35,278 nt of DNA from an uncultured Clostridia bacterium (GTDB lineage Bacteria; Bacillota; Clostridia; Oscillospirales; Oscillospiraceae): positions 1-35,278 of the forward strand of contig CAMFFO010000009.1 of NCBI GenBank assembly GCA_945949735.1, in the 5' to 3' direction. A program made the position numbers and the translations under genes. Within the stretch, counting starts at the first letter, position 1. The number at the start of each line of letters is the position of its first letter. Shown here in pieces: positions 4,703-35,278 of this stretch. The notes under the pieces were generated by a model that was not told where the DNA came from, searched no databases, and worked only from the letters and a program-made list of their open reading frames with translations.

Positions 4703-4748
4703 CAGGTTACCTTAAGTGATGTAACGAGATGTAACAGAGGAGTAACCC

Positions 4749-7174: not shown

Positions 7175-7176
7175 AA

Positions 7177-7536: not shown

Positions 7537-7544
7537 GAGGCCAT

Positions 7545-10109: not shown

Positions 10110-10435
10110 GTCCTGGCCTCCTGAAGGATGGAGAGGAACTCCGCCAGCGTCTCCTTGGGAAGATTCCTGGACATGGCGATGTCCACCGCCCGGAGGCGGT
10201 ATGCGTCCTCCGGAGAGGGGGGAAGGGGACGGGAAGGGCTTCCCATGGCGGGGATGGCCGCGCAAAGGCGGTCCCACGTGGCCCCGTTCACCCGGGGATG
10301 TGTCCCCTTGGCGATCTGGTAAAGAAGCTGGGGGGAAAGCCCGCACGCCCTGGCCAGGCCTGGCATACCGCCGGGCGTCTTCTCCGCCGCCTCCGTGATG
10401 GCGCGCCTCTCCTTCTCTGTCAACCCGCGGATCAT
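10106..10435 (-). CDS. HTH regulator, paralogue of the adjacent repressor
   Basis: A 109-residue DNA-binding protein with an XRE/Cro-type helix-turn-helix at about 25-60 (LARACGLSPQLLYQIAKG) and a C-terminal helical tail (DAYRLRAVDIAMSRNLPKET). The same architecture and clear similarity occur in the next leftward gene (10445-10876), so the two arose by duplication. A GAGGA site precedes the ATG. It lies between the repressor and the integrase in one leftward operon and overlaps int by four bases. It could tune lysogeny or integrase expression. The specific role is not visible from sequence. Confidence 0.7.
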   Translation of the reverse strand: MIRGLTEKERRAITEAAEKTPGGMPGLARACGLSPQLLYQIAKGTHPRVNGATWDRLCAAIPAMGSPSRPLPPSPEDAYRLRAVDIAMSRNLPKETLAEFLSILQEART

Positions 10436-10444
10436 GTTTATTCC

Positions 10445-10876
10445 TCACTTCCCTTGCAGTCGTTCCGCCTCTTCTCGAAGGACATCGACGACTTTTCTCA
10501 TTGTTTCTGGATCCAGCCCCAGAGCCAGCAGCCTGTCTTGGCATCTGAGGCGATAGGTATCCAGGGGAAAAGCTGCCCCGGCTATAGCCGTAGCCGGCGA
10601 GTTGCATCCACTCCCAGTCCGTGCGATAGCTATGGGCGTCTGCTGCCTGCCTGAGGTATTTCCTAGCGGGGATGCAAGTTCAGATAGTCCTTTCACGCTG
10701 GCGCAAAGCCTAAGCCATGTGTCCTCCTGGACAGCGGGATATTCACCCCTGAGGATTTTTGATATTGCCTGTGGTGCAATCCCTGTATCCCTTGCCAGAC
10801 GAGCGGAGGCCCCTCTGGCAGACCCTATGGCAGAGTTTATGTATTCTGAAATCTTGCTTGTGATCCTGAACCGCAT
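10445..10876 (-). CDS. HTH repressor-like regulator (CI-type candidate)
   Basis: A 143-residue protein with an XRE-type helix-turn-helix near residues 17-55 (LARDTGIAPQAISKILRG), a low-complexity linker, and a C-terminal tail (DTYRLRCQDRLLALGLDPET) paralogous to that of the downstream gene. The chosen ATG at 10876 has an AAGGAG site at ideal spacing; an ATG 14 codons upstream has none. It is the first gene of the leftward operon, divergent from the early rightward genes across a repeat-rich control region, the usual position of a lysogeny repressor. It lacks a LexA-like peptidase domain, so induction would not use RecA-stimulated self-cleavage. Confidence 0.72.
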   Translation of the reverse strand: MRFRITSKISEYINSAIGSARGASARLARDTGIAPQAISKILRGEYPAVQEDTWLRLCASVKGLSELASPLGNTSGRQQTPIAIARTGSGCNSPATAIAGAAFPLDTYRLRCQDRLLALGLDPETMRKVVDVLREEAERLQGK

Positions 10877-17384: not shown

Positions 17385-17792
17385 ATGAAGAAAGGCAGGG
17401 GCGGGAGGCCGCCCACGGAGAAGTGCGAGAAGTCGCGGATCCTGGCGGCCATCGCGGGATGCCACGGGATGAAGGGGGTCGTGGCGGCCCGCCTTGGCGT
17501 GCACAGGCAGACCCTGAACACGTATCTGAAGAGGGACCGCCAGCTGATGCAGGCCTTCGAGGATTCCGTCCTGGAGGCCCACGACGTGGCGGAGTCGGCG
17601 CTGATGGCGAACATCCAGGCGGGCAACGAGCGGGCGATCGAGTTCTACCTTGAGAGGCGGATGCCTGAGAAATACGGGAGGAGGCCGGACGCCATGATCG
17701 GGGTGAATGTGGAGGGGAACATCACCCTGGAGCAGATGATGCGCCGCGCAGGGGAATCCTGGGAGATAGGTGAGGGAGAAGGGGATGAGTGA
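17385..17792 (+). CDS. terS: Terminase small subunit
   Basis: A 135-residue DNA-recognition subunit of the packaging motor. The N-terminus is basic (KKGRGGRPP), followed by a helix-turn-helix (VVAARLGVHRQTLNTYLKRD) and a helical oligomerisation region with 'AESALMANIQAGNERAIEFYL' (in parts), typical of small terminases. ATG 17385 has AAGGA upstream; an ATG five codons earlier (17370) has no such site but cannot be excluded. It lies directly before the large subunit and overlaps it by 8 bp. Confidence 0.8.
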   Translation: MKKGRGGRPPTEKCEKSRILAAIAGCHGMKGVVAARLGVHRQTLNTYLKRDRQLMQAFEDSVLEAHDVAESALMANIQAGNERAIEFYLERRMPEKYGRRPDAMIGVNVEGNITLEQMMRRAGESWEIGEGEGDE

Positions 17793-19308
17793 CGGGAATG
17801 CATCGATGGTGGAGGCCTTTGGGAGCCTGGCGTGGCGGATGGACAACCTGTACTTCGTCGTGGACCAGGACGGGCGGGAGGTCCGTTTCCGCATGCGGGA
17901 CGCCCAGAGGAGGCTATTCTCCCGGATGCACACGCGGAACATCGTCCTCAAGGCGCGGCAGATGGGCTTCACGACCTTCATCGACCTTCTGGGGCTGGAC
18001 AGGGCGCTTTTCGTCCCCAACACGGTCTTCGCCATCGTGGCGGAATCCCTCCCCAAGGCGTCGGAGATCTTCGACAAGAAGATCAAGTATCCCTACGAGC
18101 GGCTCCCTTCCCCCATTCGGGATAAAGTGGGGATTGTCTCGGAGAGCGGGAGCCGTCTCGAGCTTTCCAACGGGAGCCGCATCAGCGTCACCGTCTCCGC
18201 CCGCTCCATGACTTGCAATTTCCTGCACATCTCCGAATACGGTCCAATCTCCGCAAGATACCCGGACAAGGCCATGGAGATCCTGACGGGCTCCTTCCCG
18301 TCCGTCCACGCCAGCGGGATCATCTTCGTGGAGAGCACGGCCATGGGGGCTTCCGGGTGCTTCTACGACATGGTCCGCCAGGCCATCCTCCGCCAGGGCA
18401 ACCCGGCCAGGCTTTCCCGGGACGAGTTCCGCCTCCACTTCTTTCCCTGGTTCGAGGACGGGACATATTCCAGCCAATCGGAGCTGGAGGTTCCGGCGCG
18501 GCTGGAGAGATACTTCGACGGCCTGGAGAAGCGCCTGGGGATCTCCCTGTCCCAGGGGCAGAGGAAGTGGTACGCCATGAAGGAGGCGACCCTCCACGAG
18601 GAAATGTGGCGGGAGTATCCATCCTTTGCGGACGAGGCCTTCCAGAGCGCCCAGGACGGGGCCTATTACAGGGAGCAGTTCGACCGCATCCTTTCCGGAC
18701 GCCGGATCACCATTGTCCCCTACGAGGAGGCCCTTCCCGTATACACCGGGTGGGACCTTGGAATCTCCGACGACATGAGCGTGTGGTTCGTCCAGTTCCA
18801 CGGGAGCCAGTGCAGGGTCATCGACTACTACGCCTCCAGCGGGGAGGGGATCCAGCACTACATCCGGGTTCTCCACGACAAGGGGTACCGCTATGGCGGG
18901 CACTTCGCCCCCCACGACATCTCCGTCAGGGAAATCGGCACGGGCCTTTCCAGGATGGAGGTGGCCTCGTCCCTAGGGCTGAGGTTCTCTAGAGTCCCGA
19001 CAAACCAGGACGTGATGGGAGGAATCCAGGCGGCGCGCGAGCTTCTGGAGTTCTGCTGGTTCGACGCATCCAAATGCGAGGAGGGGCTGAAATGCCTTCA
19101 GGCATACCGGAGGGAGTGGGACGACAGGCACGGGTGCTACAAGGACAGGCCTCTCCACGACTGGTCCAGCCACGGGGCGGACAGCTTCCGGACATTGGCG
19201 GCCGCGTGGAAAATGGGGCTCATCCGGGACGCAGGACTGGCGGGGACGCAGGGAAGCGTCTCCGAGACAGACCTCCATGTAACGGGAGGGATGCAGCCGC
19301 TATGGTGA
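17785..19308 (+). CDS. terL: Terminase large subunit
   Basis: A 507-residue packaging ATPase and nuclease. The ATPase half shows a variant Walker A, KARQMGFTT (56-64), and an acidic Walker B region ending HISEYG (S150, E151). The RNase H-like nuclease half shows D324 in GWDLGISDD and a C-terminal pair D459 and D466 in HDWSSHGADSF. Length and motif order fit the family. It cuts concatemeric DNA and pumps it into the prohead through the portal. GAGGGAGAAGGGG precedes the ATG. It overlaps the next gene by 7 bp. Confidence 0.92.
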   Translation: MSDGNASMVEAFGSLAWRMDNLYFVVDQDGREVRFRMRDAQRRLFSRMHTRNIVLKARQMGFTTFIDLLGLDRALFVPNTVFAIVAESLPKASEIFDKKIKYPYERLPSPIRDKVGIVSESGSRLELSNGSRISVTVSARSMTCNFLHISEYGPISARYPDKAMEILTGSFPSVHASGIIFVESTAMGASGCFYDMVRQAILRQGNPARLSRDEFRLHFFPWFEDGTYSSQSELEVPARLERYFDGLEKRLGISLSQGQRKWYAMKEATLHEEMWREYPSFADEAFQSAQDGAYYREQFDRILSGRRITIVPYEEALPVYTGWDLGISDDMSVWFVQFHGSQCRVIDYYASSGEGIQHYIRVLHDKGYRYGGHFAPHDISVREIGTGLSRMEVASSLGLRFSRVPTNQDVMGGIQAARELLEFCWFDASKCEEGLKCLQAYRREWDDRHGCYKDRPLHDWSSHGADSFRTLAAAWKMGLIRDAGLAGTQGSVSETDLHVTGGMQPLW

Positions 19309-19726: not shown

Positions 19727-19924
19727 ATGGGAAGCCACAAGACACCGAAAGTCGCCTCTCCTGATCCGACGCCTACGGCCGTCACGGCAGACGGGCAGGA
19801 GGCAAGCGCCGCCGAGCAGACGGAGAGGCGGAGAATCCAGACGCAGTACGGACGTCAGAAGACGATTCTTGCGGGAGACCAGGAGCAGCCGCAGGGGGGG
19901 CGCACCCTCCTTGGAGGACAGTGA
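19727..19924 (+). CDS. Small protein upstream of the portal
   Basis: A 65-residue polar protein ending RQKTILAGD ... GGRTLLGGQ. The 'TLLGG' tail after a short repeated 'TIL/TLL' element resembles small proteins placed just before portal genes in podovirus-like phages. An ATG at 19706 is a longer alternative; the chosen start has a purine-rich AAAGAGA before it. The stop overlaps the portal ATG (ATG/TGA). Function unknown. Confidence 0.55.
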   Translation: MGSHKTPKVASPDPTPTAVTADGQEASAAEQTERRRIQTQYGRQKTILAGDQEQPQGGRTLLGGQ

Positions 19925-21582
19925 TGGCGTCGGAAGCGGAATCCATCGTCAGGCGCTACAACGCCCTCAAGTCCGTGCGCGACGGCTACTGGAAGAGCCT
20001 ATGGGACAGCGTCCGCCGGTATGTCATGCCGGACGAGAAGAGCGATCTTCCCGAGGGTGCGCAGACCAGATGCCGGATTTACGACACCACGGCCATCGAG
20101 GCGCGCGGGCGACTGGCCAGCGGCATGTATACCTGGATGGCCCCAGGCGACAGGAAGTGGTTCCGCCTTGTCCCCATGGACCGACGCCTGTCCGGGAATC
20201 CCAAAGTGGAGGCCTGGTTCAGGAGCGCGACGGAGCTTCTTTCCGAGGCCCTGGCGGACAGCAACTTCCCCGGCGAGCTTGTCAAGTCCTTAAACGACCT
20301 TGCCTGCGGAATCGACGCCGTCCTCTACTGCGAGGAGGACCCAAAGAGCAGGGGGCTTGTCTTCCGCTGCTATCCCGTCGAGTCCGTTTGCTGCCAGAGG
20401 GATTCCCGCGACAGGCTGGACACGGTCTTCCGGGAGTTCTCCATGACCAGCCGGCAGGCCGCGGAGTATTTCTCCGCCAGGGACGACAACCTTCCCTCCT
20501 CCATCCGGGAGGAGGCGGAATCCGACGACCGGTGCGACCGCCAGAACTGCATTCTCCACGCCGTGTTTCCCCGGCGCGTGCGGCAGGAAAAGGCCATCGG
20601 CCAGGAGCGGATGCCCTTCAAGTCCGTCTTCATCGACCTGAAGACCAGGACGGCGATCCGGGAAGGCGGCTACGAGGAGTTTCCGTACGCCGTATGCCGG
20701 TTCCGCAAGTCCGTGCGCGAATCCTACGGGAGAGGCCCCGGCATTGACGCCCTCCCGGACATCCGGATGCTCAACCGGATGCGGGAGGGATTCCTGCGGA
20801 ACTGCGACTTCGCCGCCGACCCATCCTGGATGATTCCGGAGGGAAGCCTTGTCTCCCGTAACTTCAACCGCGCCCCCGGAGGGGTGATCTTCTACCGACC
20901 GGGGCTTTCCGGAGCCCGCCCGGAGCCCGTTCCCCGGGGGAACAACCCGTCCCTGGACTCCGAGCTCATCGAGATGGAGAGGCGGAGAATCCGCAACATG
21001 TTCTACTGGGACGTCTTCGACCCCCTGGGAGACCTTCGGAACATGACGGCCCAGGAGGCCACCATCCGCAACGAGAGCAAGCTCATCCCCTTCGGGCCCA
21101 TCGCCTGCAACATCCACAACGACCTCCTCCAGCCCATGCTGGAGCGCGCATTTGGAATCCTGGCCAGAAGCGGAATGCTGGACGCCCCTCCTCCCGAGCT
21201 TCAGAACGGGGGAGGATACAAGGTGGAGTTCATGAGCCGGATCGCCCTTTCCATGAAGCGCCAGAGCGCCATGGGATGGATCCAGACCGAGGGCACCATC
21301 CAGGGCATCGCCGCTTCCCGCCCGGATGTCCTGGACAACTTCGACGCCGACCGCATCGTCCGGGACATTGCGGAGTCAAACGGGTGCGACGGCGCCTGGT
21401 TCCGCCGGACGGACGAGCGGGACCGCATCCGGGAGGACCGCCAGAAGGCCCTCATGGAGCAGCAGCAGCAGGAGCAGGCCAAGGCGGTGATGTCCTCCGC
21501 AGGGCAGCTTGGCAAGCGTCCGGAGGCGGGAAGCCCCATGCAGGGGCTTCTCTCCTCCCTTGCGTCCCAGGCGGGGGAGTGA
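19924..21582 (+). CDS. Portal protein (T7-type head-tail connector)
   Basis: A 552-residue connector that forms the dodecameric channel for DNA. It fits the T7-type head-tail connector family in length and pattern: an N-terminal helical region (SIVRRYNALKSVRDGYWKSL), RGRLASGMYTWMAPG near residue 62, a stem region with multiple charged strands, and a Gln-rich C-terminus (EQQQQEQAKAV). This type pairs with tubular tail proteins in podoviruses, in agreement with the genes downstream. Its ATG overlaps the upstream stop. Confidence 0.9.
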   Translation: MASEAESIVRRYNALKSVRDGYWKSLWDSVRRYVMPDEKSDLPEGAQTRCRIYDTTAIEARGRLASGMYTWMAPGDRKWFRLVPMDRRLSGNPKVEAWFRSATELLSEALADSNFPGELVKSLNDLACGIDAVLYCEEDPKSRGLVFRCYPVESVCCQRDSRDRLDTVFREFSMTSRQAAEYFSARDDNLPSSIREEAESDDRCDRQNCILHAVFPRRVRQEKAIGQERMPFKSVFIDLKTRTAIREGGYEEFPYAVCRFRKSVRESYGRGPGIDALPDIRMLNRMREGFLRNCDFAADPSWMIPEGSLVSRNFNRAPGGVIFYRPGLSGARPEPVPRGNNPSLDSELIEMERRRIRNMFYWDVFDPLGDLRNMTAQEATIRNESKLIPFGPIACNIHNDLLQPMLERAFGILARSGMLDAPPPELQNGGGYKVEFMSRIALSMKRQSAMGWIQTEGTIQGIAASRPDVLDNFDADRIVRDIAESNGCDGAWFRRTDERDRIREDRQKALMEQQQQEQAKAVMSSAGQLGKRPEAGSPMQGLLSSLASQAGE

Positions 21583-23063: not shown

Positions 23064-24002
23064 ATGCCCGAACTGAAAGCAATCTACGCGACTACCTACG
23101 CGAACAACGTGTATAACATGGCCCAGCAGCAGGGCAGCCTGCTCTATGGCCACGTGACCCACATCGACATGAAGGGGGAGAAGCGCACCATCGAGCGCGC
23201 CCACCCCACCAAGGCCGTCCGCTTCGAGGGGACCGCCGGGGACACTCCCAACATCCAGACCAAGTTCAGCCGCCGGATTCTCTACGCCCACCAGTACCAC
23301 TGGGGCGAGATGCTGGACTGGACCGAGGAGCAGGGGATGAACCCCATCGTGGATCCCACCGGCCCCATCACCATGAACGGCGCCTACGCCATGGGGAGAT
23401 GCCTGGACGAGATCATCATCTCCCGAGGCCTCAACGGGATTTCCTACGAGCTCACCGAGACCAGCGGAGTCGTCTCCGACGAGACCCCCGTGGAGCTTCC
23501 CGCCTCCCAGAAGGTTGCGGCAAGCTACAGGGACGCGGGAGAGTCTGGGACCGGGAACACCGGCCTCACCCTCTCCAAGCTCATCAAGGCCCGCTCCATC
23601 CTTGGCAAGTCCATGATTCCCATGAACATGCCCGGGCAGGAGGTGTGCTTCGCCGTATGCCAGAGCCAGCTGGACGACCTTCTCAAGTCGGACAAGGTCC
23701 AGTCCAGCGAATACAACACCATCCGCGCCCTGGTCACCGGGGAGATCGACACCTTCATGGGCTTCAAGTTCATCAAGATGGCCGAGGATCTCCTGCCCCT
23801 GGCCGAGGATGGCGCATCCGGCGTCCGCAGCTGCTTCGCCTGGCTCAGGAGCAACGTGGTCATGGCCGAGCCCCAGGCCGTCAGCACCACCATCAACACC
23901 CGGCCCGACAAGTGCAACGCCTGGCAGGTCTACTCCAAGCTCAAGGCGGGGTCCACCCGCTACGAGGACGGAGGCGTGGTGAAGATTCTGTGCGCCGAAT
24001 AG
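23064..24002 (+). CDS. Major capsid protein
   Basis: A 312-residue protein that fits the HK97-fold capsid family found in temperate podoviruses with T7-type connectors: 'ATTYANNVYNMAQQQ' at the N-terminus, 'RAHPTKAVRFEG', 'AYAMGRCLDEIIIS', and the P-domain 'LSKLIKARSILGK' with 'TGEIDTFMGFKFIKM' near the end. Codon use is the most biased in the window (strong preference for C-ending codons), as expected of a highly expressed gene. Located between scaffold and tubular tail genes. A GGAG site precedes the ATG. Confidence 0.88.
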   Translation: MPELKAIYATTYANNVYNMAQQQGSLLYGHVTHIDMKGEKRTIERAHPTKAVRFEGTAGDTPNIQTKFSRRILYAHQYHWGEMLDWTEEQGMNPIVDPTGPITMNGAYAMGRCLDEIIISRGLNGISYELTETSGVVSDETPVELPASQKVAASYRDAGESGTGNTGLTLSKLIKARSILGKSMIPMNMPGQEVCFAVCQSQLDDLLKSDKVQSSEYNTIRALVTGEIDTFMGFKFIKMAEDLLPLAEDGASGVRSCFAWLRSNVVMAEPQAVSTTINTRPDKCNAWQVYSKLKAGSTRYEDGGVVKILCAE

Positions 24003-24015
24003 CCGGAGGGGGAAG

Positions 24016-24594
24016 ATGCGGAGCGTCACGTCTGTCTGCAACATGGCCCTGGGCTACCTGAACCATCCGCCATTGTCAAGTCTTGACGAGGAGGGGCGCC
24101 CTGAGGCGGAGCTCCTGCGCCGCATCTTCCCCGATGTCCGGGACAGAGTCCTGGGAGAGCATCCATGGAGTTTCGCCACCAGGCGTGAGAAACTTGCGGA
24201 GCTCTCCCAGGACTCACCATATCCTGACTGTTCCAAGGCATACGGCCTCCCCCATTCCTGCCTCCGCGTCCTGGACGTTGGCGACGGAAGCCGCTACATC
24301 AGGGAAGGAGGAAGGATCTACACTTCCCATCCCCGTCCGTCCATCGAGTATGTCAAGAGGGTGGAGGAGATGGACGACTGGCCTCCCAAGGTCATCTCCG
24401 CCCTGTGCTTCCTTCTCGCCTCGGAGATGGCCCTCCCGCTTTCCGGGGACGCCAATCTGTTCAATGCGATGTACAACCGCTTCCGCATGGAGATCGACTC
24501 CGCAAAGTCCGAGGACTACATCGAGAATTTCCACGCATCCCAGCCGGAGAGGACGCAGGGAAGCTTCCTCTCCTCCCGTTTCGGAGGAAACTGA
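24016..24594 (+). CDS. Tail tubular protein A (T7 gp11-like)
   Basis: A 192-residue adaptor that joins portal to nozzle. The motifs 'VCNMALGYLNHPP', 'VLGEHPWSFATRRE', 'YGLPHSCLRVLDVG' and 'FLLASEMALPLSGD' are typical of the gp11-type family, and the length fits. The next gene is the expected partner, tubular protein B, and overlaps by a single base (TGATG). A GGAGGGGGA site lies before the ATG. Confidence 0.88.
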   Translation: MRSVTSVCNMALGYLNHPPLSSLDEEGRPEAELLRRIFPDVRDRVLGEHPWSFATRREKLAELSQDSPYPDCSKAYGLPHSCLRVLDVGDGSRYIREGGRIYTSHPRPSIEYVKRVEEMDDWPPKVISALCFLLASEMALPLSGDANLFNAMYNRFRMEIDSAKSEDYIENFHASQPERTQGSFLSSRFGGN

Positions 24595-27158
24595 TGCCCG
24601 TCCATTCCATCGTGAACTCCTTCAATGCGGGAGAGCTTTCCCCACGTCTCCTCGCCAGGCCGGACCTTGACGCCTACCCAAGAGGATGCCGGACCATGGA
24701 GAACTTCCTTCCAACCCCGTACGGGAGCGCGGAGAGACGGCCGGGAACTGAACTTTTTGGATATAGCAGCTACGGATCCAGCGGGCGCCTTGTCAGCTTC
24801 GTCTTCAACGACGTCAACGCCTACATCCTTGTCTTCCGGTTCGACGGAGGCGTGTCCGTCCGGCGCTTCGCTGACACACCGGAGGACAGGACATACACCT
24901 ATGCCTCCGTCCCCGGCGAATACGAGCCGGACCCGGGCGCCCCTGTCCCTGAGGAAGGAGAGGAGGACACCAGGGAAATGGTTCCCAAGAGATTCTTCTT
25001 TCCCCTTGCCGAGGACGAGTGGATCGATCCCTGGAAATTCCAGTTCGTCCAGTCCGCCGACGTGGTTTTCATCGTCCACCCGGACTATCCGCCGCACCGT
25101 CTGTCCCGCACGGGAAAGGACGTCTTCCAGATGGAGGAGATGCCATTCCGCTATCCTCCGTCCCTGGATATAGACACATCGGGCACGCGCCTCAAGTGCA
25201 TAAACAAGCCAGGGACAGGAGGAGGAACGAGGCCGCCGGAGCCTGGAGAGACGGGGACCCTCTATGCGGACAAGGAGATTTTCAAGGAGTCCGACGTGGG
25301 AAAGAGATACCTCCTTACCTACAGGAACAGCACGAAGGGAACTCTGACCATCGCCAAGACAGCCGCAGGCGACACGGGCGGATTCGAGAAGAGGCTCTCC
25401 TGGACAAGGGTGAAAGGGGCGTATACCGTCACCAGCCACGGCACATGGACGGGAACCCTTTCCGTACAGAGAAAATACAGCGACACGCAGCCGACCTCCT
25501 ACGAAGGAGCGGAGACCATCGCCGTCTATTCCAGCGAGAACGACTTCAATGTCTCCCTTTCCGGGGACGAGCCGGAGGATGACGCCTGGTATTCCGTCTA
25601 TTGGAGCGGAAGCCTTGCCAAGACGGAAAGCACCCTCAACTTCATGAACCCCGGCTTCTCCATGACCGGCGTGGTCCGGGCGACATCCTTCACGGACGCA
25701 AAGCAAATGGACTGCGTCTGCGAGAAACGCCTATACTCCTACGGCTACGCATCATCCTGGAGAGAGGGGGCGTTCTCCCCGGAAAAGGGATACCCCCAGG
25801 CCGTGGCCATCTACCAGGAGAGGCTTTTCCTTGGCGGAACGTCCGCCCACAGAAACCGGATCTGGGGAAGCCGGACGAACGACTGGAACAATTTCGAGGT
25901 GGTAGGCCAGGAGGACGACAGCGCCCTGGATCTCACCATGTGCTCCCCCACCGTCTCCAGGATCTGCTGGATGCAGGACAAGGACGCCCTCATCGTGGGC
26001 ACCACGGAGGACGAGTGGGCCGTCTCCTCCAGCAACGGACAGAACGCCCTCTCCGCCTCAAATCTCCGAATCCGCCGGAACTCCGCCTTCGGCAGCTGCT
26101 TCCCCGCCTTGTCCATCATGGCCCAGGACATCCTGGTATTCGTCCAGAAGGACAGGAAGAAGGTCAGGAGCCTCTTCTACTCCTGGGAGCAGGACGCCTT
26201 CAAGAGCGAGGAGATGACCCTTCTCGCGGAGCATGTCTGCCGGGCAGGCGTCAGGGAGATCCACCTCCAGAAGTCCCCGGAGACGGTCCTCTGGGCCGTC
26301 CTCATGGACGGATCCGTGGCATCGGCCACCATCGACACGTCCCAGAACGTCACCGCCTGGGCTCGCTTTTCCACTTCATCCCGCGGAAAGGGCGTTGTCT
26401 CCATGTGCATTCTACCGGGGGCGGACGGGGAGGACAGGGTCTATATGCTGGTCCAGAGGAACAAACTCGTTTCCAAGATAGACGGAAACCAGGAGCAGCC
26501 ATGTTTCTCCCTTGAGAGAATGTTCCCGAGGAAAGGATGGAGCGCCCTGGACACACCCATGCTGGACATGGCCATCCGAATCGAGGCGCATGGAGACGCC
26601 GAACCATACTGGGGAAGGACCCATGGATCCTCAGACTGCCCGATATCCAACATCGCGAGAATCAACCCCACGGGGAATAATGCTCTTTCCGTAAAATTCC
26701 CTTCGATAACCGTTCCCGCGCCTTCCCTAGTCCTTCTCACGGACGACGGGGAGTGCTTTCCCGTCTCCCTGGATTCCATCGATGCCCAAAGTCACACTTT
26801 CACCCTGCCCAAGGAGATTTCCGGGGGATGGATAGGCTGCCTGTACACCTCAGAGCTCTCCCCCATGCCGGCGGAATACGGGATGCAGGACGGGCACTCC
26901 ATGCTCCGGAAGAAGACGGTCCACCGCGTCCTTGTGGATGTCTACGACTCCATGGGAGGGGAGGTGCAGGTGAATGGCGGACCCGTCTCCCGCATCTGTC
27001 CCAGAAATTCCGGAGATTCCTGGGACGCTCCTGTTCCCCAGGGAAGCATCGAGGTGTCCGCGCCATTCTCGGGGCACGAGAGGAGAGTGGAGACCGTGGT
27101 CAGGCAGAGGGAGCCATGGCCCCTCAACGTTTCGGCGATTGCCCAGATAATGCAATGA
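24594..27158 (+). CDS. Tail tubular protein B-like nozzle / stabilisation protein
   Basis: An 854-residue tail nozzle protein. The start MPVHSIVNSFNAGELSPRL and 'RRPGTELFG' are hallmarks of the large stabilisation/tubular protein family in podoviruses. The body is a series of beta-rich domains: a beta-propeller-like region with 'YQERLFLGGTSAHRNRIWGS' near 420, and a C-terminal beta sandwich. Its ATG overlaps the tubular A stop. T7 gp12 (about 790 residues) is similar in size. It probably forms the hexameric nozzle that carries the fibres. Confidence 0.88.
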   Translation: MPVHSIVNSFNAGELSPRLLARPDLDAYPRGCRTMENFLPTPYGSAERRPGTELFGYSSYGSSGRLVSFVFNDVNAYILVFRFDGGVSVRRFADTPEDRTYTYASVPGEYEPDPGAPVPEEGEEDTREMVPKRFFFPLAEDEWIDPWKFQFVQSADVVFIVHPDYPPHRLSRTGKDVFQMEEMPFRYPPSLDIDTSGTRLKCINKPGTGGGTRPPEPGETGTLYADKEIFKESDVGKRYLLTYRNSTKGTLTIAKTAAGDTGGFEKRLSWTRVKGAYTVTSHGTWTGTLSVQRKYSDTQPTSYEGAETIAVYSSENDFNVSLSGDEPEDDAWYSVYWSGSLAKTESTLNFMNPGFSMTGVVRATSFTDAKQMDCVCEKRLYSYGYASSWREGAFSPEKGYPQAVAIYQERLFLGGTSAHRNRIWGSRTNDWNNFEVVGQEDDSALDLTMCSPTVSRICWMQDKDALIVGTTEDEWAVSSSNGQNALSASNLRIRRNSAFGSCFPALSIMAQDILVFVQKDRKKVRSLFYSWEQDAFKSEEMTLLAEHVCRAGVREIHLQKSPETVLWAVLMDGSVASATIDTSQNVTAWARFSTSSRGKGVVSMCILPGADGEDRVYMLVQRNKLVSKIDGNQEQPCFSLERMFPRKGWSALDTPMLDMAIRIEAHGDAEPYWGRTHGSSDCPISNIARINPTGNNALSVKFPSITVPAPSLVLLTDDGECFPVSLDSIDAQSHTFTLPKEISGGWIGCLYTSELSPMPAEYGMQDGHSMLRKKTVHRVLVDVYDSMGGEVQVNGGPVSRICPRNSGDSWDAPVPQGSIEVSAPFSGHERRVETVVRQREPWPLNVSAIAQIMQ

Positions 27159-27565: not shown

Positions 27566-27567
27566 AG

Positions 27568-28107
27568 ATGGCCGTACCAACGATGCTTATTGCCACCGCA
27601 GTTTCGGCGGCCGCAGCCACCTATGGGGCTGTGGACTCCCACCAGCAGCAGAAGGCAAACGCGAAATACAACGCGAAAGTGGCGGAAGCCAACGCCAAGG
27701 CCGCGGAATTGCAGGGGAGGTCAGAGGAGGAGCAGGCGGCGGAGAACGCCCGTCGCCAGCAGATCGAGAAGCGAAGGGCCCTTTCCGCCATGCGGGCGCA
27801 ATACGGAGCCTCCGGGGCCGCCCTTTCCAGCGGGAGCCCCCTGGCCCAGTTGGGGCAGGCCGCGTCGGACATGACCCTTGCCTCCAACGACACCCTTCGC
27901 GCCGGCGTCATCGGGCGCTCCTCCGCCATGACCCAGGCGTCCCTGTTCAGAGCCCAGGGGCAGATGGCCAAGATGTCCGCTCCCAGCACGGCGTCCCTTG
28001 CGGGGAACATCACGGGAATCTGGGCAAACGCCACGGCGAATGCAGCTATGGCATACTCCGTGATGAATCCCTCCGAAAACTCTCCGAAAACACCACCAAA
28101 AAAATAA
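27568..28107 (+). CDS. Internal virion protein (T7 gp14-like)
   Basis: A 179-residue protein with a hydrophobic, alanine-rich N-terminus (MLIATAVSAAAATYGAV), a charged helical middle (KAAELQGRSEEEQAAE) and a 'SGAALSSGSPLAQL' motif typical of gp14-type core proteins. In T7, gp14 leaves the head first and inserts in the outer membrane to begin the ejection channel. Placement just before gp15-like and giant gp16-like genes agrees. GGAGG precedes the ATG. Confidence 0.8.
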   Translation: MAVPTMLIATAVSAAAATYGAVDSHQQQKANAKYNAKVAEANAKAAELQGRSEEEQAAENARRQQIEKRRALSAMRAQYGASGAALSSGSPLAQLGQAASDMTLASNDTLRAGVIGRSSAMTQASLFRAQGQMAKMSAPSTASLAGNITGIWANATANAAMAYSVMNPSENSPKTPPKK

Positions 28108-28146
28108 CGGCGGACCATCCGGATCCGGCGGAAAAAGAGGCAAACC

Positions 28147-29742
28147 ATGCCAGTGATACCGAAGACACAACTGACGATGGCGTCCGGAGCCGTGCCGAGA
28201 TACGGAACCCAGCAGATGCTCCCGAAGGACTTCAACGTGGGAAATTCCCTGGGAGCCGGAATCGCCAAGGGGATCGGAAGCATAGCGGACGCCGTCGCCT
28301 CCATTGCGACCATGAAGGGGAAGGAGGAGAGGCTCAAGAAGGAGGCGGACGAGAAGCTCGCCCAGGCCAACGAGGAGTTCACCCTGCGGGAGATGATGCT
28401 GGACGCCAACGCCAGGTTCCAGGCCAGCTTCGAGGACATGAAGAGAAACCCCGGCTCCTACGAGGAGTTCCGGGAGATTGCGGACGACGCCGTGGGCACC
28501 GTCCGCATTGCCAACGACGAGAGGTACCAGGGGCTTTCCGAACTTGGCAAACGGAAATACGACCTTTTCCAGAAGGAGGCGGAGCTGGGATTCTACCAGA
28601 AGGCGGAGAATCTCCAATACCAGGCGACGGTGAGCCACATGCTGGAGAAGACGAACCATCAGATCCAGGACGCCCTTTCCGGGGAAGAGCCGGACTTCAT
28701 CCTGGCCAGGGACACCGTGAATTTCCAGCTGGAGAACGGGCTTGTCACGGACATCGGCGCCGAGGAGATGCTCAAGAAGATCGGCGTCCAGGAACAGGTC
28801 CACGCCGCCTCCCTGGAAATGCAGGAGAACCCGAAGGCGTTCCTGGCCAATGTTGCCGGAGGAAAGTTCGGCGAACTCCCAGGGAAGGAGAGGGCGTCCC
28901 TTTGCCGCGACGCCCAGGGGATTCTCAACGCTGGAGAGACGCGCCTCATGGATTCCCTCTCTGTCCGCATGGCGGAAGGGGCGGAAATCTCCCAGGAGGA
29001 GCTTTCCGCCCTTCATGAAACGGGGACCATAGGGGACAGGAACTATTCCAAGCTTCTTTCCATGGTGAAGGAGGACGCCGAGAGGAAGGAAAGCGCATAC
29101 AGGAAGGCCTCCGAGAACGAGAGGAAGCAGGCGGAGGAGAGAAAGGCAATGGAGGACAGGGTTGCCGTTTCCGAAGCCAGGCGAAAGGTCTACGCCATGA
29201 GATGGGATGAGGATCCCATCGAGCGGGGAAGGCAGTACAACGACATTTGCGCCGACATCATGGAGCGCTTCTGGGTGAAGGATCGCCAGGCATGCAGCGA
29301 CCTTCTCGCCTACCTGAAGCAGACGGCCTATCCGGAGAAGGCGGCCAATCCCATGCTGGTCAGGCAATACGAGCAGGAATTCGGAGAAGGGCCGGACGCA
29401 TCCCTCCTCTCTGTGGCGGATCCGGAGAGGGACGGCAAGTGGTGGAGAGACAGCCGGGGGAACGAGGACGAGGTGACTCAACAGACCGGCGCCTTCTTCG
29501 ACATGGCGATGCGGAAATACATCGACATGAACCCGGAGGCAACCATCGACGACCTTCGCAGTTACTCCGTCTCCCTGGGAAAGAGAATCAACGCGTGGAC
29601 CATTGACAACTACATGGCCAAGCTGGCAGAGGCGTCCGCAAAGGCCAATGCGAAGAGCATCCCGGTGGAACTCCGGAAATACGACGACAAGGAAGGGAAC
29701 AGATGGATTTTTCAGGACGGAGCATGGGGAGTGATGAAATGA
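28147..29742 (+). CDS. Internal virion protein (T7 gp15-like)
   Basis: A 531-residue, mostly helical protein with a glycine-rich segment (VGNSLGAGIAKGIGSIADAV, near 30-50), then long charged helices and coiled coil (about 310-350, KASENERKQAEERKAME). It lies between the gp14-like and giant gp16-like genes, in the same order as the T7 core proteins 14-15-16, and would form the periplasmic part of the ejection tube. Sequence similarity to T7 gp15 itself is not evident; the call rests mainly on order and helical character. It overlaps the next gene by ATGA. Confidence 0.7.
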   Translation: MPVIPKTQLTMASGAVPRYGTQQMLPKDFNVGNSLGAGIAKGIGSIADAVASIATMKGKEERLKKEADEKLAQANEEFTLREMMLDANARFQASFEDMKRNPGSYEEFREIADDAVGTVRIANDERYQGLSELGKRKYDLFQKEAELGFYQKAENLQYQATVSHMLEKTNHQIQDALSGEEPDFILARDTVNFQLENGLVTDIGAEEMLKKIGVQEQVHAASLEMQENPKAFLANVAGGKFGELPGKERASLCRDAQGILNAGETRLMDSLSVRMAEGAEISQEELSALHETGTIGDRNYSKLLSMVKEDAERKESAYRKASENERKQAEERKAMEDRVAVSEARRKVYAMRWDEDPIERGRQYNDICADIMERFWVKDRQACSDLLAYLKQTAYPEKAANPMLVRQYEQEFGEGPDASLLSVADPERDGKWWRDSRGNEDEVTQQTGAFFDMAMRKYIDMNPEATIDDLRSYSVSLGKRINAWTIDNYMAKLAEASAKANAKSIPVELRKYDDKEGNRWIFQDGAWGVMK

Positions 29743-32700
29743 AGGGCGCAGCCTTCGAACTTGGCGTCTTCGACGACGACGGTACCCGTCTGGACAGAAG
29801 CCAGTGGGACGGCAAGCCCCAGGAGTGGATCGACTCCCATTCCCGCCTTGTGAGATACGGAGAGCAGGAGATTCCGCAAGGCGGACGCCTGACTCCCGAC
29901 GGAAGGCTCGTCCCATGGGACGACTGGAACTCCATGTTTCCCAGCAGAGAGTTTCAGAAAGAGGAGAAGACAGCGGAGGAGGATCCGCTTCCTCAATCCC
30001 TTGGCTACCGGATGCGCAACGACGTGCTATTCATGCTGGCCAATGGAGACGAGTTCGCCTTCGCTCCGGAAGAGCAGAGGGATGGCCTGAAAAACTGGTG
30101 CATCCAGAGGGCGAAGCTTGACGGGGAGGACTACGAGACGGTCAGGGACCGGCTCTATTATTCCGTCTATCTTTCCAACGTCGCCCTGAAGAACGCCAGG
30201 CTTTCCACCATCTACAACATCGCCGACACCTATGCCGTGGAGAAGATGAAGGAAGGCAAGGGGAAGAACGCGGCCGAGGCATGGCGTGCCTTCACGGACA
30301 AGTTCAGGATCCACAAGCAGGGAGAAGGAGGATGGGCTAGCGCGGCGAAGGCGTCTGGCACCCAGGCGCTAGGCCATGTCCTCAATGCGGGAACTGCCGT
30401 GCTGGAAGGCGCCTACATGGCGGGAAACGCCGTTGGCGCCGTGGACGACGAAACCCTGGAGGCATTCCGCCAGTACACGGGGGACGCCCTCGGCTATCTC
30501 AGGGAGAAGGACATGGAGTACCAGCAGGGGGCCATTTCCGACCCAGACTTCTGGAAGAGCCTATGGCGGCCTTCCTCTCTGAACGACCTGGCCAAGTTCC
30601 TGGCCATCCAGACCCCGAGGCAGATCCTGCAGGTCGCCGAGGCGGCATACATGGGGCCCCTTGCCTCCGCATCATTCGTGGGGCTGGAAAGCGGATACGG
30701 CAAGCTGGCGCAGCTGAGGGAGGAAAACCCGGAGATGTCGGAAGAGCAACGGGCGGTCAATGCCCTGGCCACGGGAGTCATCAATTCCGGCGCACAATGG
30801 CTCCTGGCCGGCATCGCCGCTGGAAAGCTGTTCAAATACAATCCGAAGATCGCAAACCCTTACCTTCAGGTGGCCGCATATCTTGCAAAATCCGCCGCTT
30901 CAGAGGCTGGCCAGGAGGCTGCGGAACAGGCGACGGAGAACCTGGTGGACATCTACACGGGGGCAAGGGGGGATATTTCCCAATGGACGAGGAAGGACTA
31001 TCTGGAGAATATCTCCGACGGCGTTGCCCTTTCCGCCATCGCCGGAGGCTTCTTGGGGACCATGGGATCGGCCGTCAGGATGCCAGGGCATAGATCCGCC
31101 CTGTACACCGTATTCACGGAACAGCGCATCGCGAATGACACCATCGCCGACGCCCAGAGAATCCATGCGGATCTCCATGGACGGGACAGGCTAACCCCCG
31201 CCCAGGCCAACCTGCTGAACGCGGCCTCGGACGTCCTCTCCAGGACATACGCGGACAATTGGCAAGAGACTTTCTTCCTGAGAAAGCTGGCCCTGGAGAA
31301 CGCAAAGGCGCAATACAACGAATCCCTGACCCGCGCCGTGGATCTTGCCTCTTATCTGGATCCCGACTATCACCTGGAGGCGGAGCCTCCCGCCTATGCA
31401 GGCCTTACGGACGAGGGTGCGAAGGCGAGGGCAAGATACGAGGCGCATGCGGCCGCCATCGATTTCGCATTGGCGAAGAAGGCGCCCCATGACCCTGCGG
31501 ATACCTTCGAGGCCGTGAAACAAGTCTTCCAGGATGTGCGAATCGAAGGGTCATCCGTCTCCTGCGACTCTGGCTCCACCTGGGAACGGCTCCCCCCGGA
31601 AGTCAAGGCCATCGCCTCTCTCCAGGGGTTCGGCCCTGGAAACCTGCCGCGTTTCGTAAAGTCGCGGGACGGCGGATCCCTATGGCTCAACGCCGACAGC
31701 GTCACCCCTTCCGAGGCGCGGATGATCTGTCTCCAATACATGGCGGAGAAGGGATTCAGAAACCTGTTCGGGAATCGGTTCGACGAGGTCATGGAATCCG
31801 TCTACTCCTCCATATCCCGAACGGAGGAGGCTGGCCAGCTCGTCCAGGAGATCCTGGGAAGGGATCCCGGAGAAGACTTGGGGGCGGTGCCCAAGGAGGT
31901 CAAGTCCCTGGTTGCCCAGGAGTTTCTGGCCAGGCGCGCGGCCGACGGCCTGGAGAAGCTTCCGGGAATCGTCTCCCGGGGCGTCCAGGCCATGCGCCAG
32001 CTCATCCTGGGCGCAAAGGCATTTGCCTCCGCCGGCATCTCCGACAAGGACATTCTCACCCTGGTATCCCGCTCCTTGGATGCCGCCAAGGGAGGCAAGG
32101 GGAACCCCGTGGAGCTCAAGGCAGGACAGGCGAAGGAGGCCTGGGACGCCGTGGAGACCGTGGCCAACGGCATCGGCCTGGAATTCACCCTGGCCACCGA
32201 CCAGGAATGGAAGGCGGAGATGAAGAAGGCGGCAGAGGCAAAGGGAATCCCCCTGGCGGAGTTCGAGAGAAAGTACAGGGTCAACGGATGGTACGCCGAC
32301 GGGGACCGTGTGATGATCGCCCCCGGCGTCTCCCCCAGGTTCGCCTTCGCCCACGAGATGGGGCACTGGCTCAGGAAGAGCCACGCCGACGTGTGGAATG
32401 CATTGGCCAGCCTTGCCAATGAGGCGCTGACAGAGACCGGGAAGGCCGGGATGGAGGCGGAGGAAAGGCGCTATCAAGGAATCCAGGCCGACGTGGCCGA
32501 GGAGTTCCTCTGCGACCGCATCGCCGAGGCCATGGAGAACCCCGCCCTGGTCCGCTCCTTCGTCCGAACCCTGGAGGCCAGGAAGGCGGGACTGGGGAAG
32601 CGCGTCCTCTACGCCATCCGGGACTTCCTGGAATATGTCCTGGACTTCTTCTCAGGCAACGCCAGGAAGAACCCCAGCTTCCGGAACATCGACGCCTTCT

Positions 32701-35278
32701 CCCGGGAGGTGGGGCGAACCCTGGCGGGATTGAAGGCAGGGGAAGGGATGGAAACAGCGGTTTTTGATGCAAACGGAAAGTCCGCATATTCCATCGTGAC
32801 AAGGCCGGACGGAAGCAAATATGTGAAGCTGGATGTCGACCAGGATTTGTTCGATGGGCTTTCCCCTATGGAATGCCTCAAACAGGCGAGAAAGGTTATC
32901 CTGAATAAGTTCAGAGGAAAGGTGATTGGCGAAAAGCCAAACAATGCGTATGTGGACAACAAAGCAGCTGGAGAATACGCCTATCCCGCAAAGAAATATG
33001 ACAAGAAGAATCCCAAGGATCTGGAATTGGCGGAGGCCAAAGGTCGCGCGTCAACAGAACTGGATTCGCTCATGGAGGCCGCTGTTTTCCTTGAACATAA
33101 GAATGATGACGGACGACACGAAAATGCAATCGGAGGATGGAACTACTACAGAGTGGAGTTTGAAGGCCCCTATGGTAGAGTTTTCGAGGGGGTTATCAAT
33201 GTCAAGATAGGAGAGGATGGTAGAAGAATCTTCCACGATTTCAATAAAATAAAAGAGACCACTGCCAGTGGGTATAAGCGGTCAAGCCGCATCCTTAGCA
33301 GTGATCTCAAGGATACTATATCCCCGGAAGAGAAATTTTCCATCACGTCCGTGGCGGAAAGGCGGAAAGATCTGATTGCGCTGCACAATCTCTCGGAGGA
33401 GAAGCTCGTCTCCGCGGGAGAGCTTGGCGGCTTCCCCATGCCGTCCATCGCCGTGGTGAAGGACTCCATGGATCATTCGGGGTACGGTCCCATCTCCCTC
33501 CTCTTCCCCTCCTCCTCCATCGACCCGAAGAGAAACAAGGCAAACCGCATCTACTCCGGCGACGCCTGGACGCCCACCTTCCCGAGAATCGAATACGAGG
33601 CGAGCGAGGAGACAGAGGAGCGGATAGGCGCCAGATACAGGGATCTGAAAGCCAGATTCGGCGATGAAAATTCCAGACCCCTCTATGACTACTATTCGGA
33701 TCTGCAGGACCGTCTAAACCATCTGGGAGGCGTGGAGGGCATCCTGGAAAAGGAGATGCGAAACACCGGCATGATGAAGCTGTTCCTCCTGGACCAGGGG
33801 CTGGAGGTTCCCGCCCCCGTGGAGGAGGTCAGGACGGTGAGGCCGTACACGGAGGAGACCCTGGGGCTTTTCGACGACATCGTCTCCATGCTCGGCCGGG
33901 ATTTCTTCCGGTGGGACGAGGAGCATTCCAGCTTCAGGGAATGGAAGGAATCCCACCTGGAGGAATTCAATAAGGCGTATGCCGAGGCCCGGGAGCGTCA
34001 TCCCCGCGCCATGAATCGTCCGCTAGCGAGTATGGCCTTCAATGTCGCCTCATACGTCAAGAACGGGCCTGAGATGACAAATAGGACCGTGGACATAATG
34101 AAGACGGGCGAAGCAATCCGTAAGGCAACGGACGGCGGGAAGTACCGGAAATGGCTTTCCGATCTGTTCGCCGGGGCCGAGAAATCCCGCGGGATCCGCA
34201 ACGGCAGGGACACTTTCACCCCTTCCGGCACCCGGAGAAGTTTCTCCGCGACCCACGACCCAGTTACCCTGGCCAACGCCGTGCGCGCCATGCTCATGGA
34301 GAAGGAGAAGGGCGGGATACTGGGAACCAATCCCTACGCGGCCGCCACAGAAATGTACAAGTCCCTGAATGACGTGATCAAGGACGAGGGAAGGCTCCAG
34401 AGAATGGACGACTCCAAGCTCTCGGAGATCCAGGAGAAGAAGGACGCGGCCTGTGGCGTCATCCAGGAGATTGCCAATGTCCTTGTCTCAAGAAGGGGGG
34501 TGAAGGGCTATGGGAACCCGCTCTTAGTCTATGCCGATGCCCGCGAAGCCATGCTGGATGCCTATGCAAAAGGGAAAGGGAATCCCGAAAAGGTTCTCGG
34601 TGAGATGAACCGGGAAGGATTCTACCAGGCGACAAAGGAGGAGATCCAGAGGTTCTGCCAGGCCATGAAGGAGCTGCGGAACCTTCCCACGAAGTATCTC
34701 GAGGCGAAGCCCGCCCGGGCCGTCGCCTTTGACGAAGTCGCCGCCGCCATCGTCCCCGAGGACATTTCCCGGGAGGCCATGGATGTCCTGCGCAGGAACC
34801 GGGTGAAGGCCTACACCTACAAGCCAGGGGACAAGGAAGACCGCATCCGGGCCGTGAACCAGGCCGCCGACGAAAGCCAGGGCACGAGATTCCTCATTTC
34901 TGAAAATCACGCATACAACGCCCTTCGTGACATTGCCGAGGGGAAAGAATACGGCATCCTTCACAATGCCAAATACGGGGAAATCCGGTATCCTCTGGGA
35001 AGAATGGGAAAGCATGGAATGGGATTCCTTCACATTGTGGAATCCAGGATGCGGAAGGATCACGCCAGCCTACAGGAAGCGCTGGACATTGCCATAAAGG
35101 TCGGAATCGCCGCAGAAATCGGAGAGGAGGTGGAGGCAAGATTAAATACCCGCCACTTCCAATACGAGAATGTCAAGGCAATTATCGCTCTTGAAAGTCT
35201 AGAAGAAAATGGTCAAACCAGGATAAATAGAGTAATCACAGGATATGAAATAGTGACGGATGGTCAATCCGGTGCTGT
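29739..35278 (+). CDS. Giant internal virion / polyvalent protein, N-terminal half (continues at 54)
   Basis: The frame is open to the window's end and, through the 55-bp repeat, joins 54-4702 to give about 3377 residues. Domains in order: an acidic N-terminus; a region with hydrophobic segments and 'SEAGQEAAEQATENLVDIYTG' (about 390-410); a zincin metallopeptidase with HEMGH (H872, E873, H876) and a possible third ligand E921/E922; a nuclease-like or LPD-type module (about 1010-1150, with HENAIGGWNYYRVEFEG at 1127); an 'LHNLS..GGFPMPSIAV' module (from 1215) with YSGDAWTPTFP; helical linkers; and a barnase/EndoU/RelE-like (PBECR-type) module with GMGFLHIVESR (H1765) and ending ITGYE (1833-1837). 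Such mosaics are the phage polyvalent proteins, thought to be delivered with DNA. No T7-type transglycosylase is seen. The ATG overlaps the gp15-like stop. Confidence 0.82.
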   Translation, partial: MKGAAFELGVFDDDGTRLDRSQWDGKPQEWIDSHSRLVRYGEQEIPQGGRLTPDGRLVPWDDWNSMFPSREFQKEEKTAEEDPLPQSLGYRMRNDVLFMLANGDEFAFAPEEQRDGLKNWCIQRAKLDGEDYETVRDRLYYSVYLSNVALKNARLSTIYNIADTYAVEKMKEGKGKNAAEAWRAFTDKFRIHKQGEGGWASAAKASGTQALGHVLNAGTAVLEGAYMAGNAVGAVDDETLEAFRQYTGDALGYLREKDMEYQQGAISDPDFWKSLWRPSSLNDLAKFLAIQTPRQILQVAEAAYMGPLASASFVGLESGYGKLAQLREENPEMSEEQRAVNALATGVINSGAQWLLAGIAAGKLFKYNPKIANPYLQVAAYLAKSAASEAGQEAAEQATENLVDIYTGARGDISQWTRKDYLENISDGVALSAIAGGFLGTMGSAVRMPGHRSALYTVFTEQRIANDTIADAQRIHADLHGRDRLTPAQANLLNAASDVLSRTYADNWQETFFLRKLALENAKAQYNESLTRAVDLASYLDPDYHLEAEPPAYAGLTDEGAKARARYEAHAAAIDFALAKKAPHDPADTFEAVKQVFQDVRIEGSSVSCDSGSTWERLPPEVKAIASLQGFGPGNLPRFVKSRDGGSLWLNADSVTPSEARMICLQYMAEKGFRNLFGNRFDEVMESVYSSISRTEEAGQLVQEILGRDPGEDLGAVPKEVKSLVAQEFLARRAADGLEKLPGIVSRGVQAMRQLILGAKAFASAGISDKDILTLVSRSLDAAKGGKGNPVELKAGQAKEAWDAVETVANGIGLEFTLATDQEWKAEMKKAAEAKGIPLAEFERKYRVNGWYADGDRVMIAPGVSPRFAFAHEMGHWLRKSHADVWNALASLANEALTETGKAGMEAEERRYQGIQADVAEEFLCDRIAEAMENPALVRSFVRTLEARKAGLGKRVLYAIRDFLEYVLDFFSGNARKNPSFRNIDAFSREVGRTLAGLKAGEGMETAVFDANGKSAYSIVTRPDGSKYVKLDVDQDLFDGLSPMECLKQARKVILNKFRGKVIGEKPNNAYVDNKAAGEYAYPAKKYDKKNPKDLELAEAKGRASTELDSLMEAAVFLEHKNDDGRHENAIGGWNYYRVEFEGPYGRVFEGVINVKIGEDGRRIFHDFNKIKETTASGYKRSSRILSSDLKDTISPEEKFSITSVAERRKDLIALHNLSEEKLVSAGELGGFPMPSIAVVKDSMDHSGYGPISLLFPSSSIDPKRNKANRIYSGDAWTPTFPRIEYEASEETEERIGARYRDLKARFGDENSRPLYDYYSDLQDRLNHLGGVEGILEKEMRNTGMMKLFLLDQGLEVPAPVEEVRTVRPYTEETLGLFDDIVSMLGRDFFRWDEEHSSFREWKESHLEEFNKAYAEARERHPRAMNRPLASMAFNVASYVKNGPEMTNRTVDIMKTGEAIRKATDGGKYRKWLSDLFAGAEKSRGIRNGRDTFTPSGTRRSFSATHDPVTLANAVRAMLMEKEKGGILGTNPYAAATEMYKSLNDVIKDEGRLQRMDDSKLSEIQEKKDAACGVIQEIANVLVSRRGVKGYGNPLLVYADAREAMLDAYAKGKGNPEKVLGEMNREGFYQATKEEIQRFCQAMKELRNLPTKYLEAKPARAVAFDEVAAAIVPEDISREAMDVLRRNRVKAYTYKPGDKEDRIRAVNQAADESQGTRFLISENHAYNALRDIAEGKEYGILHNAKYGEIRYPLGRMGKHGMGFLHIVESRMRKDHASLQEALDIAIKVGIAAEIGEEVEARLNTRHFQYENVKAIIALESLEENGQTRINRVITGYEIVTDGQSGA
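35224..35278. repeat. 55-bp terminal direct repeat, right copy
   Basis: Identical to 54-108 and in the same codon phase. The window stops exactly at the end of this copy, as expected where an assembler closes a circle at k=55. Confidence 0.9.

What the first reader, a model, noticed from the sequence alone, without database searches (positions are those of the whole stretch)
29739..35278. One gene crosses the circle junction and encodes a protein of about 3,377 residues
The frame opened at 29739 runs off the window at 35278. The 55 bases at its end recur at 54-108 in the same codon phase and lead without a stop to 4702. The joined gene is 10,134 nt, an exact multiple of three, about 29% of the genome. 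Treated as a linear record it would be split into two unrelated-looking proteins, and the N-terminal part could be missed altogether. A phage spending nearly a third of its DNA on one ejected protein is notable.
Basis: seen in the sequence. Interest (0 to 1): 0.8.

Follow-up and report, generated by a model that had tools for sequence, protein, structure and literature searches.

The report
Giant phage protein with swappable modules
Two apparent gene fragments at the ends of this bacterial-virus sequence are one giant gene, 29% of the genome, and its protein, likely injected into the bacterium, has middle modules that differ between close relatives, with changeovers that cluster at a short recurring tag that would be a cutting site.

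Summary
The last 55 bases (35224-35278) equal bases 54-108, in the same codon phase. The joined frame from 29739 is 10,134 nt (3,377 aa, no internal stop), 28.8% of a 35,170-bp circle. It does not rest on the overlap alone: a database protein of 3,377 aa from a 35,002-nt contig is uninterrupted and differs at 8 of 3,377 residues, none near the junction. Seven further full-length relatives (3,303-3,376 aa) also run through.

The gene stands where T7 gene 16 would stand, after a gp14 homologue. By content it is a phage 'polyvalent protein': an HExxH metallopeptidase motif, Pfam PBECR5, and a second nuclease-like module through which the junction runs. Such giants are common (782 proteins in one capped search), so size alone is ordinary.

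More interesting: close relatives share 96-98% of the backbone but carry different cassettes in two internal slots. Changeovers cluster at a short tag, [FY]S[IL]: 37 of 110 within five residues, 5.0 expected. One cassette family occurs in slot 1 of some relatives and slot 2 of another. A few other giants repeat tags of their own (FDTPEL, RFKR). I infer that the tags are cut sites for the built-in peptidase; this is untested.

The parts
29739..35278 (+). 5' part of the giant gene (residues 1-1846 and the first two bases of 1847)
   Evidence: ATGA overlap with the upstream stop at 29742
109..4702 (+). 3' part of the giant gene (rest of residue 1847 to 3377, stop at 4700-4702)
   Evidence: uninterrupted in P0121-P0128
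54..108 (+). copy of the last 55 bases of the contig: terminal overlap
35224..35278 (+). terminal overlap, identical to 54-108
1..53 (.). AT-rich 53 bases that do not belong to the gene; likely a stray assembly tip or a minor variant
   Evidence: in-frame stop; no second place in own assembly (bases 2-53); no exact match of bases 1-44 in viral contigs or genome contigs
32352..32366 (+). HEMGH motif, residues 872-876, predicted zincin metallopeptidase
   Evidence: the HExxH column is shared by 30 of 34 aligned relatives
32787..33335 (+). slot 1 (residues 1017-1199), opens with tag YSI
33330..33908 (+). Pfam PF18814 PBECR5 match
   Evidence: E 1.3e-47, 163.1 bits against a cut-off of 25
33336..34889 (+). 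mid module (residues 1200-1717), opens with tag FSI; named PBECR5, its model resembles ADP-ribosyltransferases
34890..35278 (+). slot 2, part before the junction (from residue 1718), nuclease-like cassette X
109..220 (+). slot 2, part after the junction (to residue 1884)
221..229 (+). tag FSL (residues 1885-1887) that closes slot 2
28147..29742 (+). 531-aa gene in the gp15 position
   Evidence: no Pfam family at E<=0.01
27568..28107 (+). T7 gp14 family internal virion protein
   Evidence: PF24072, E 1.1e-8
24405..27158 (+). tail protein, gp12-like position
   Evidence: phrog_376, E 2.3e-133
24016..24594 (+). tail protein, gp11-like position
   Evidence: phrog_394, E 1.7e-42
23064..24002 (+). 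major capsid protein
   Evidence: PF19821, E 1.5e-63
19921..21582 (+). head-tail connector (portal)
   Evidence: PF12236, E 4.8e-102
17770..19308 (+). terminase large subunit
   Evidence: phrog_2, E 8.6e-25
8949..10607 (-). integrase (predicted temperate phage)
   Evidence: phrog_1, PF00589
4749..6644 (+). tail-fibre-like gene after the giant gene
   Evidence: PF12789, E 4.6e-16

Best explanation
The two contig ends carry the halves of one 10,134-nt gene whose 3,377-residue protein has a backbone shared at 96-98% with nine relatives and middle modules that differ between them, and the protein is likely packaged and ejected with the phage DNA so that its modules would act as effectors inside the host cell. 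Shown: the uninterrupted gene in eight other full-length database proteins; its place after the gp14-like gene; the HExxH motif, the PBECR5 match and the slot-2 module; the difference in modules between close relatives, with changeovers clustered at [FY]S[IL] tags. Predicted: nuclease-like fold of slot 2, and an ADP-ribosyltransferase-like fold for the module that Pfam names PBECR5. Inferred and untested: packaging, ejection, and that the built-in metallopeptidase cuts at the tags to free the modules, as a viral polyprotein does. On this view phages replace an effector by exchanging the cassette between two tags and keep the structural backbone.
Against: No virion or cleavage data. 46 of 110 switches lie more than 31 residues from any tag, inside modules, e.g. 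at 1258-1306 and 1473 in the mid module. The left edge of slot 1 in this phage's own five pairs is 23 residues from the tag. About 8% of alignment ends over the giants have the tag near. The tag that opens slot 2 here is degenerate (RFLIS). In other giants the slot-2 module is flanked by strict [FY]S[LI] in only 3 of 21, all close kin. A shared flank 4-mer is seen in 6 of 16 (expected 1.07), but two of the six words are not tags, this phage's own protein shares none, and the 3-mer version is weak, 12 against 9.13. Own-word giants are few: two or more FD[TS]PE in 5 of 151, RFK[RK] in 2 of 151, [RK]FS[LI] in 15 of 151. The backbone is not constant throughout: residues 2550-3377 are only 88% identical in four of seven full-length relatives. 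The tags may be mere linkers. N4 virion RNA polymerase is packaged unprocessed although it has such a peptidase domain (PMC5512222).
Confidence: 0.64

Rival explanations
1. The tags are only flexible linkers or recombination-tolerant spots: modules are exchanged there because junctions between domains are harmless, and nothing is cut.
For: Cassette exchange explains the data without cleavage. N4 virion RNA polymerase carries a metallopeptidase domain and is packaged unprocessed (PMC5512222, passage).
Against: Linkers need no fixed aromatic word, yet words recur within some proteins: FDTPE up to four times exactly, FD[TS]PE up to six, and [DG]I[RKMNQ][FY][SDK] is five times over shuffles while its reverse is not.
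Confidence: 0.42
2. The two ends are separate genes that look joined because of a 55-base repeat.
For: The shared stretch is only 55 bases, and 53 unrelated bases precede it at the left end.
Against: P0128 and seven further full-length proteins run through the position.
Confidence: 0.02
3. It is a true T7 gp16-type ejection motor enlarged by insertions, the modules being structural.
For: Same place after a gp14-family gene; hydrophobic peaks at 3222 and 3254.
Against: No transglycosylase or gp16 family in Pfam at E<=1; gp16 homologues span 609-1337 residues (PMC8954989, passage); the middle modules look like toxin or effector folds.
Confidence: 0.2

Closest known systems
Phage polyvalent proteins (Iyer et al. 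2017, PMC5512222)
   Same: Giant multidomain protein coded among virion genes, HExxH metallopeptidase motif, PBECR and LPD-type modules, mosaic architecture.
   Different: Exchange seen here between backbones 96-98% alike, at fixed slots edged by a short repeated tag. The strings 'FSL', 'linker' and 'boundar' do not occur in that paper's main text.
T7 gp16 ejection protein
   Same: Gene position after a gp14 homologue; likely internal virion protein.
   Different: 3,377 against 609-1337 residues (PMC8954989, passage); no transglycosylase domain found.
N4 virion RNA polymerase
   Same: About 3,500 residues, ejected (PMC12633501, abstract start in search listing); carries a metallopeptidase domain (PMC5512222).
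   Different: No polymerase family in Pfam at E<=1.
Helicobacter jhp1044 polyvalent proteins
   Same: PBECR-bearing orthologues with up to 50 domain combinations (PMC5512222, passages).
   Different: No tag reported in the passages that I saw; different phages.
Acinetobacter phage Ab9 giant CDS (PP763254)
   Same: 8,520-nt CDS after internal virion protein and endolysin genes in a 38.7-kb circular phage; short PBECR5-region match.
   Different: Only 78 residues match, at 41%.

Membership tests
Phage polyvalent protein | several unlike catalytic domains in one large polypeptide | tested here: met
   HExxH motif, PBECR5 and the slot-2 module in one 3,377-aa frame; activities predicted only
Phage polyvalent protein | zincin-like peptidase: HExxH and a downstream glutamate | tested here: met
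   HEMGH at 872 with a DVAEE stretch downstream; HExxH column in 30 of 34 relatives. Motif only, fold not modelled; the glutamate column was not counted
Phage polyvalent protein | PBECR or LPD domain | tested here: met
   PF18814 above cut-off; LPD3 in relatives P0001, P0002, P0122, P0125
Phage polyvalent protein | coded among virion genes | tested here: met
Phage polyvalent protein | enters the host with the DNA | not testable with these tools
   needs virion and infection proteomics
T7 gp16 ejection protein | gene follows gp14- and gp15-like genes | tested here: inconclusive
   gp14 family found; the 531-aa gene has no Pfam family at E<=0.01 and no PDB sequence match at E<=1
T7 gp16 ejection protein | N-terminal lytic transglycosylase | tested here: not met
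   Pfam at E<=1 on both halves; P22 and Sf6 homologues lack it too (PMC8954989)
T7 gp16 ejection protein | transmembrane helices in the C-terminal part | tested here: inconclusive
   hydropathy 1.74 at 3222 and 1.58 at 3254
N4 virion RNA polymerase | RNA polymerase domain | tested here: not met
   none in Pfam at E<=1
BECR-fold nuclease (slot 2) | BECR fold | tested here: inconclusive
ADP-ribosyltransferase (mid module) | ART fold | tested here: inconclusive

The most novel reading that the evidence does not exclude
Giant phage polyvalent proteins are injected polyproteins with a plug-in system: each protein repeats its own short aromatic cut tag at module edges, its built-in metallopeptidase releases the modules at these tags in the host, and phages re-arm by swapping cassettes, even between slots, while the backbone stays almost unchanged.
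Probability: 0.3. Interest if true: 0.82.

Novelty: new variant of a known kind. Interest (0 to 1): 0.57.

Why it matters
Polyvalent proteins were proposed in 2017 to be cut by their own peptidases, but the passages that I read name no cut sites. The repeated tags give specific predicted sites, and the slots give natural swaps on a nearly constant backbone, so the polyprotein idea can be tested directly. For annotation: linear gene calling on this contig splits a gene of 29% of the genome in two, inside its variable slot.

Tried and rejected
Searches for relatives in viral contigs with three pieces of the giant gene and in genome contigs with one found none; the tail gene 24405-27158 gave five distant viral loci. 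No match in the 59 other genomes searched as relatives with one piece or the 135 other genomes of the genus with another. The phages collection gave 3 records for the first half and 1 for the second, none covering 80%. No tRNA in the window. ORF 27480-29018 was rejected as spurious: it overlaps the 28147-29742 gene, matches no PHROGs or Pfam family, and its translation is of biased composition. PDB sequence search of the second half at E<=0.1 and of the 531-aa gene at E<=1: nothing.

The recount does not bear that out (51 of 110 within 11 residues), so the wording was changed and the odds were moved a little (best explanation 0.66 to 0.64, novel case 0.33 to 0.30, linker rival 0.40 to 0.42).

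Fold of the mid module: Foldseek alone gives nothing at E<=0.001; the ADP-ribosyltransferase likeness comes from the second look. Profile comparison of the mid module with 11 of 15 DarT loci and 23 of 25 ParE loci gave at most 2.3% probability, the highest for a C-terminal piece against ParE. Dropped before it: DarT L020 (stop) and L023, L027, L031 (short matches), ParE L035 and L049 (different offsets). A first run was spoiled because minus-strand loci had not been turned. The slot-2 profile matched neither ParE nor DarT, so its nuclease fold rests on structure alone.

Literature: ten searches showed me no paper on cut tags in these proteins; most subscription papers are not held. Seen: PMC5512222 (outline, passages, section 34) and PMC8954989 (passages); all others only in search listings.

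Full report
CHECK. The window is a whole contig (C9) of a 289-contig assembly. Its last 55 bases equal bases 54-108 and occur nowhere else in it. The frame that leaves at 35278 enters at 109 in the same phase: 10,134 nt from 29739, 3,377 residues, one stop at the end. Without the overlap and the 53 leading bases the circle has 35,170 bp, so the gene is 28.8% of it. Start 29739 is preferred to the first ATG at 29703 because it overlaps the upstream stop as ATGA and because P0001 and P0002 start at the same residue.

The join does not rest on the overlap. A search with the first 1,000 residues of the relative P0001 gave 12 proteins: ten close ones, P0001 included, and two distant ones. Eight of the ten are full length, 3,303-3,377 aa, and run through the position. 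P0128 (3,377 aa, contig 35,002 nt) differs from the joined protein at 8 of 3,377 residues, none nearer than 248 residues to the junction residue 1847, and is identical over 1821-1880. Its source is not disclosed and may be the same sample. The other two, P0001 and P0002, also run through the position but have a foreign tail further on.

WHAT IT IS. Gene order is that of a T7-type short-tailed phage: terminase subunits, head-tail connector, capsid, two tail proteins, a T7_gp14 family protein, a 531-aa gene, the giant gene, then a tail-fibre-like gene. An integrase on the other strand suggests a temperate phage. The connector's best named matches are Pelagibacter and Vibrio podoviruses at about 30% (40 of 183 records listed). 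The giant protein has Pfam PBECR5 (E 1.3e-47) and an HEMGH motif at 872. HExxH occurs somewhere in 44 of 51 non-redundant proteins, this one included, and in one alignment column in 30 of 34 relatives. This fits the polyvalent proteins of Iyer et al. (PMC5512222). The PBECR5 part has 782 relatives at E<=0.001 in a search limited to 1,022-3,251 aa and to the 7,987 candidates that shared most words; 111 of the 120 listed have 2,500 aa or more. Giants of this kind are common.

CASSETTES. Against nine relatives (P0121-P0127, P0001, P0002) residues below 1000 and 1901-2549 are 96.0-98.2% identical, while residues 1017-1884 differ. The C-terminal part, 2550-3377, is 98.1-100% identical in three of the seven full-length relatives but 88% in P0122, P0124, P0125 and P0127. 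Slot 1 (1017-1199) holds three families: this phage's with P0122, P0123, P0124, P0126 and P0127 (49-52% to this phage); P0121 with P0001; P0125 with P0002. Slot 2 (1718-1884) holds three: this phage's; an LPD3 type in eight relatives; another in P0123. The cassette of P0123 slot 2 matches that of P0121/P0001 slot 1 at 80% over 230 aa. In P0125 the mid module keeps only its first 65 residues, and an ART-PolyVal domain follows between two tags. The slot-2 cassette of this phage also occurs in 21 other giants of 1,926-4,321 aa at 49-57%. The contig broke inside slot 2, and variants there may be why (inference).

TAGS. Slot edges carry [FY]S[IL] in the proteins compared, with two degenerate forms: RFLIS here and LSITD in P0123. 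In 15 pairwise identity tracks of six proteins, 37 of 110 switches lie within 5 residues of a tag (5.0 expected from tag positions), 51 within 11 (10.4 expected), 13 at 12-31, and 46 further away. The far ones are mostly inside modules, such as 1258-1306 and 1473-1476, and in the diverged slot-1 family; the left edge of slot 1 lies 23 residues off in the five pairs with this phage. Over 51 non-redundant giants with 913 alignment ends, counts within 20 residues against expectation were: [FY]S[LI] 72/33.7, FS[LI] 50/19.7, [KR]FS[LI] 41/15.2, [FY]S[VM] 34/19.9, [WH]S[LI] 12/8.4; and for controls reversed [LI]S[FY] 12/15.3, [FY]T[LI] 7/9.9, [FY]A[LI] 11/15.9, [LV]S[LI] 28/32.0. An earlier count of the words alone in 33 proteins gave FS[LI] 50 against 19.6 in shuffles and the reverse 10 against 19.1. 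A few other giants use other words: FD[TS]PE up to six times, RFK-type words up to six, YSLSM/FSLSM; two or more FD[TS]PE are found in 5 of 151 proteins, RFK[RK] in 2, [RK]FS[LI] in 15. Five-letter words used three or more times: 16 over 52 proteins against 1.4 in shuffles; tag words in five of the proteins, other words in four. The flanks of the slot-2 cassette share a 4-letter word in 6 of 16 non-redundant proteins (expected 1.07); four of these words are tags, and P0128 itself shares none; with 3-letter words it is 12 against 9.13. Strict [FY]S[LI] flanks it in 3 of 21, close kin. A wider form, [DG]I[RKMNQ][FY][SDK], occurs 22 times against 4.0 (reversed 2 against 3.6).

MECHANISM. Shown: one gene, its neighbours, motifs, cassette differences and tag positions. 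Inferred: the protein is packaged and ejected like T7 internal proteins; the peptidase cuts at the tags and releases modules that act on host RNA or other targets; recombination between phages changes the modules. Iyer et al. compare such proteins with viral polyproteins (section 34), but also note that N4 virion RNA polymerase is packaged unprocessed, so cutting could come late or never.

NOVELTY. Class and mosaicism are known. A repeated edge tag and two-slot exchange on a nearly constant backbone I did not find in the papers seen (searches).

Noticed in passing
window 33303-34881: The model of the module that Pfam names PBECR5 (a nuclease) resembles ADP-ribosyltransferases (DarT, CteC, Tpt1), so the family name may be wrong (not supported).
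   Followed up: partly
window 2353-8771; proteins P0001, P0002: In two relatives the giant frame ends in a foreign tail that matches window 7834-8064 (P0001) and 8640-8771 (P0002), as if about 5.5-6 kb with the gene's end and the tail-fibre region were lost, or misassembled.
   Followed up: partly
window 1-53: 53 AT-rich bases before the overlap, with a stop in the gene's frame; no second place found.
   Followed up: partly
L006:14803-20541: An IMG/VR podovirus-like contig (33,969 bp) has a 1,913-aa open frame running off its end; possibly the same kind of split giant gene.
   Followed up: no
P0132, P0135, P0141, P0018 and P0125: Stretches of the form RFNP/RFDx followed by DIRF recur before the tag in several giants, e.g. 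at the end of an ART-type domain.
   Followed up: partly
window, whole contig: GC is 60.4% against 53-59% in four stretches of the same assembly, and none of the 135 other genomes of the genus matches the conserved piece at 209-2491, so the link of phage to host is weak.
   Followed up: partly
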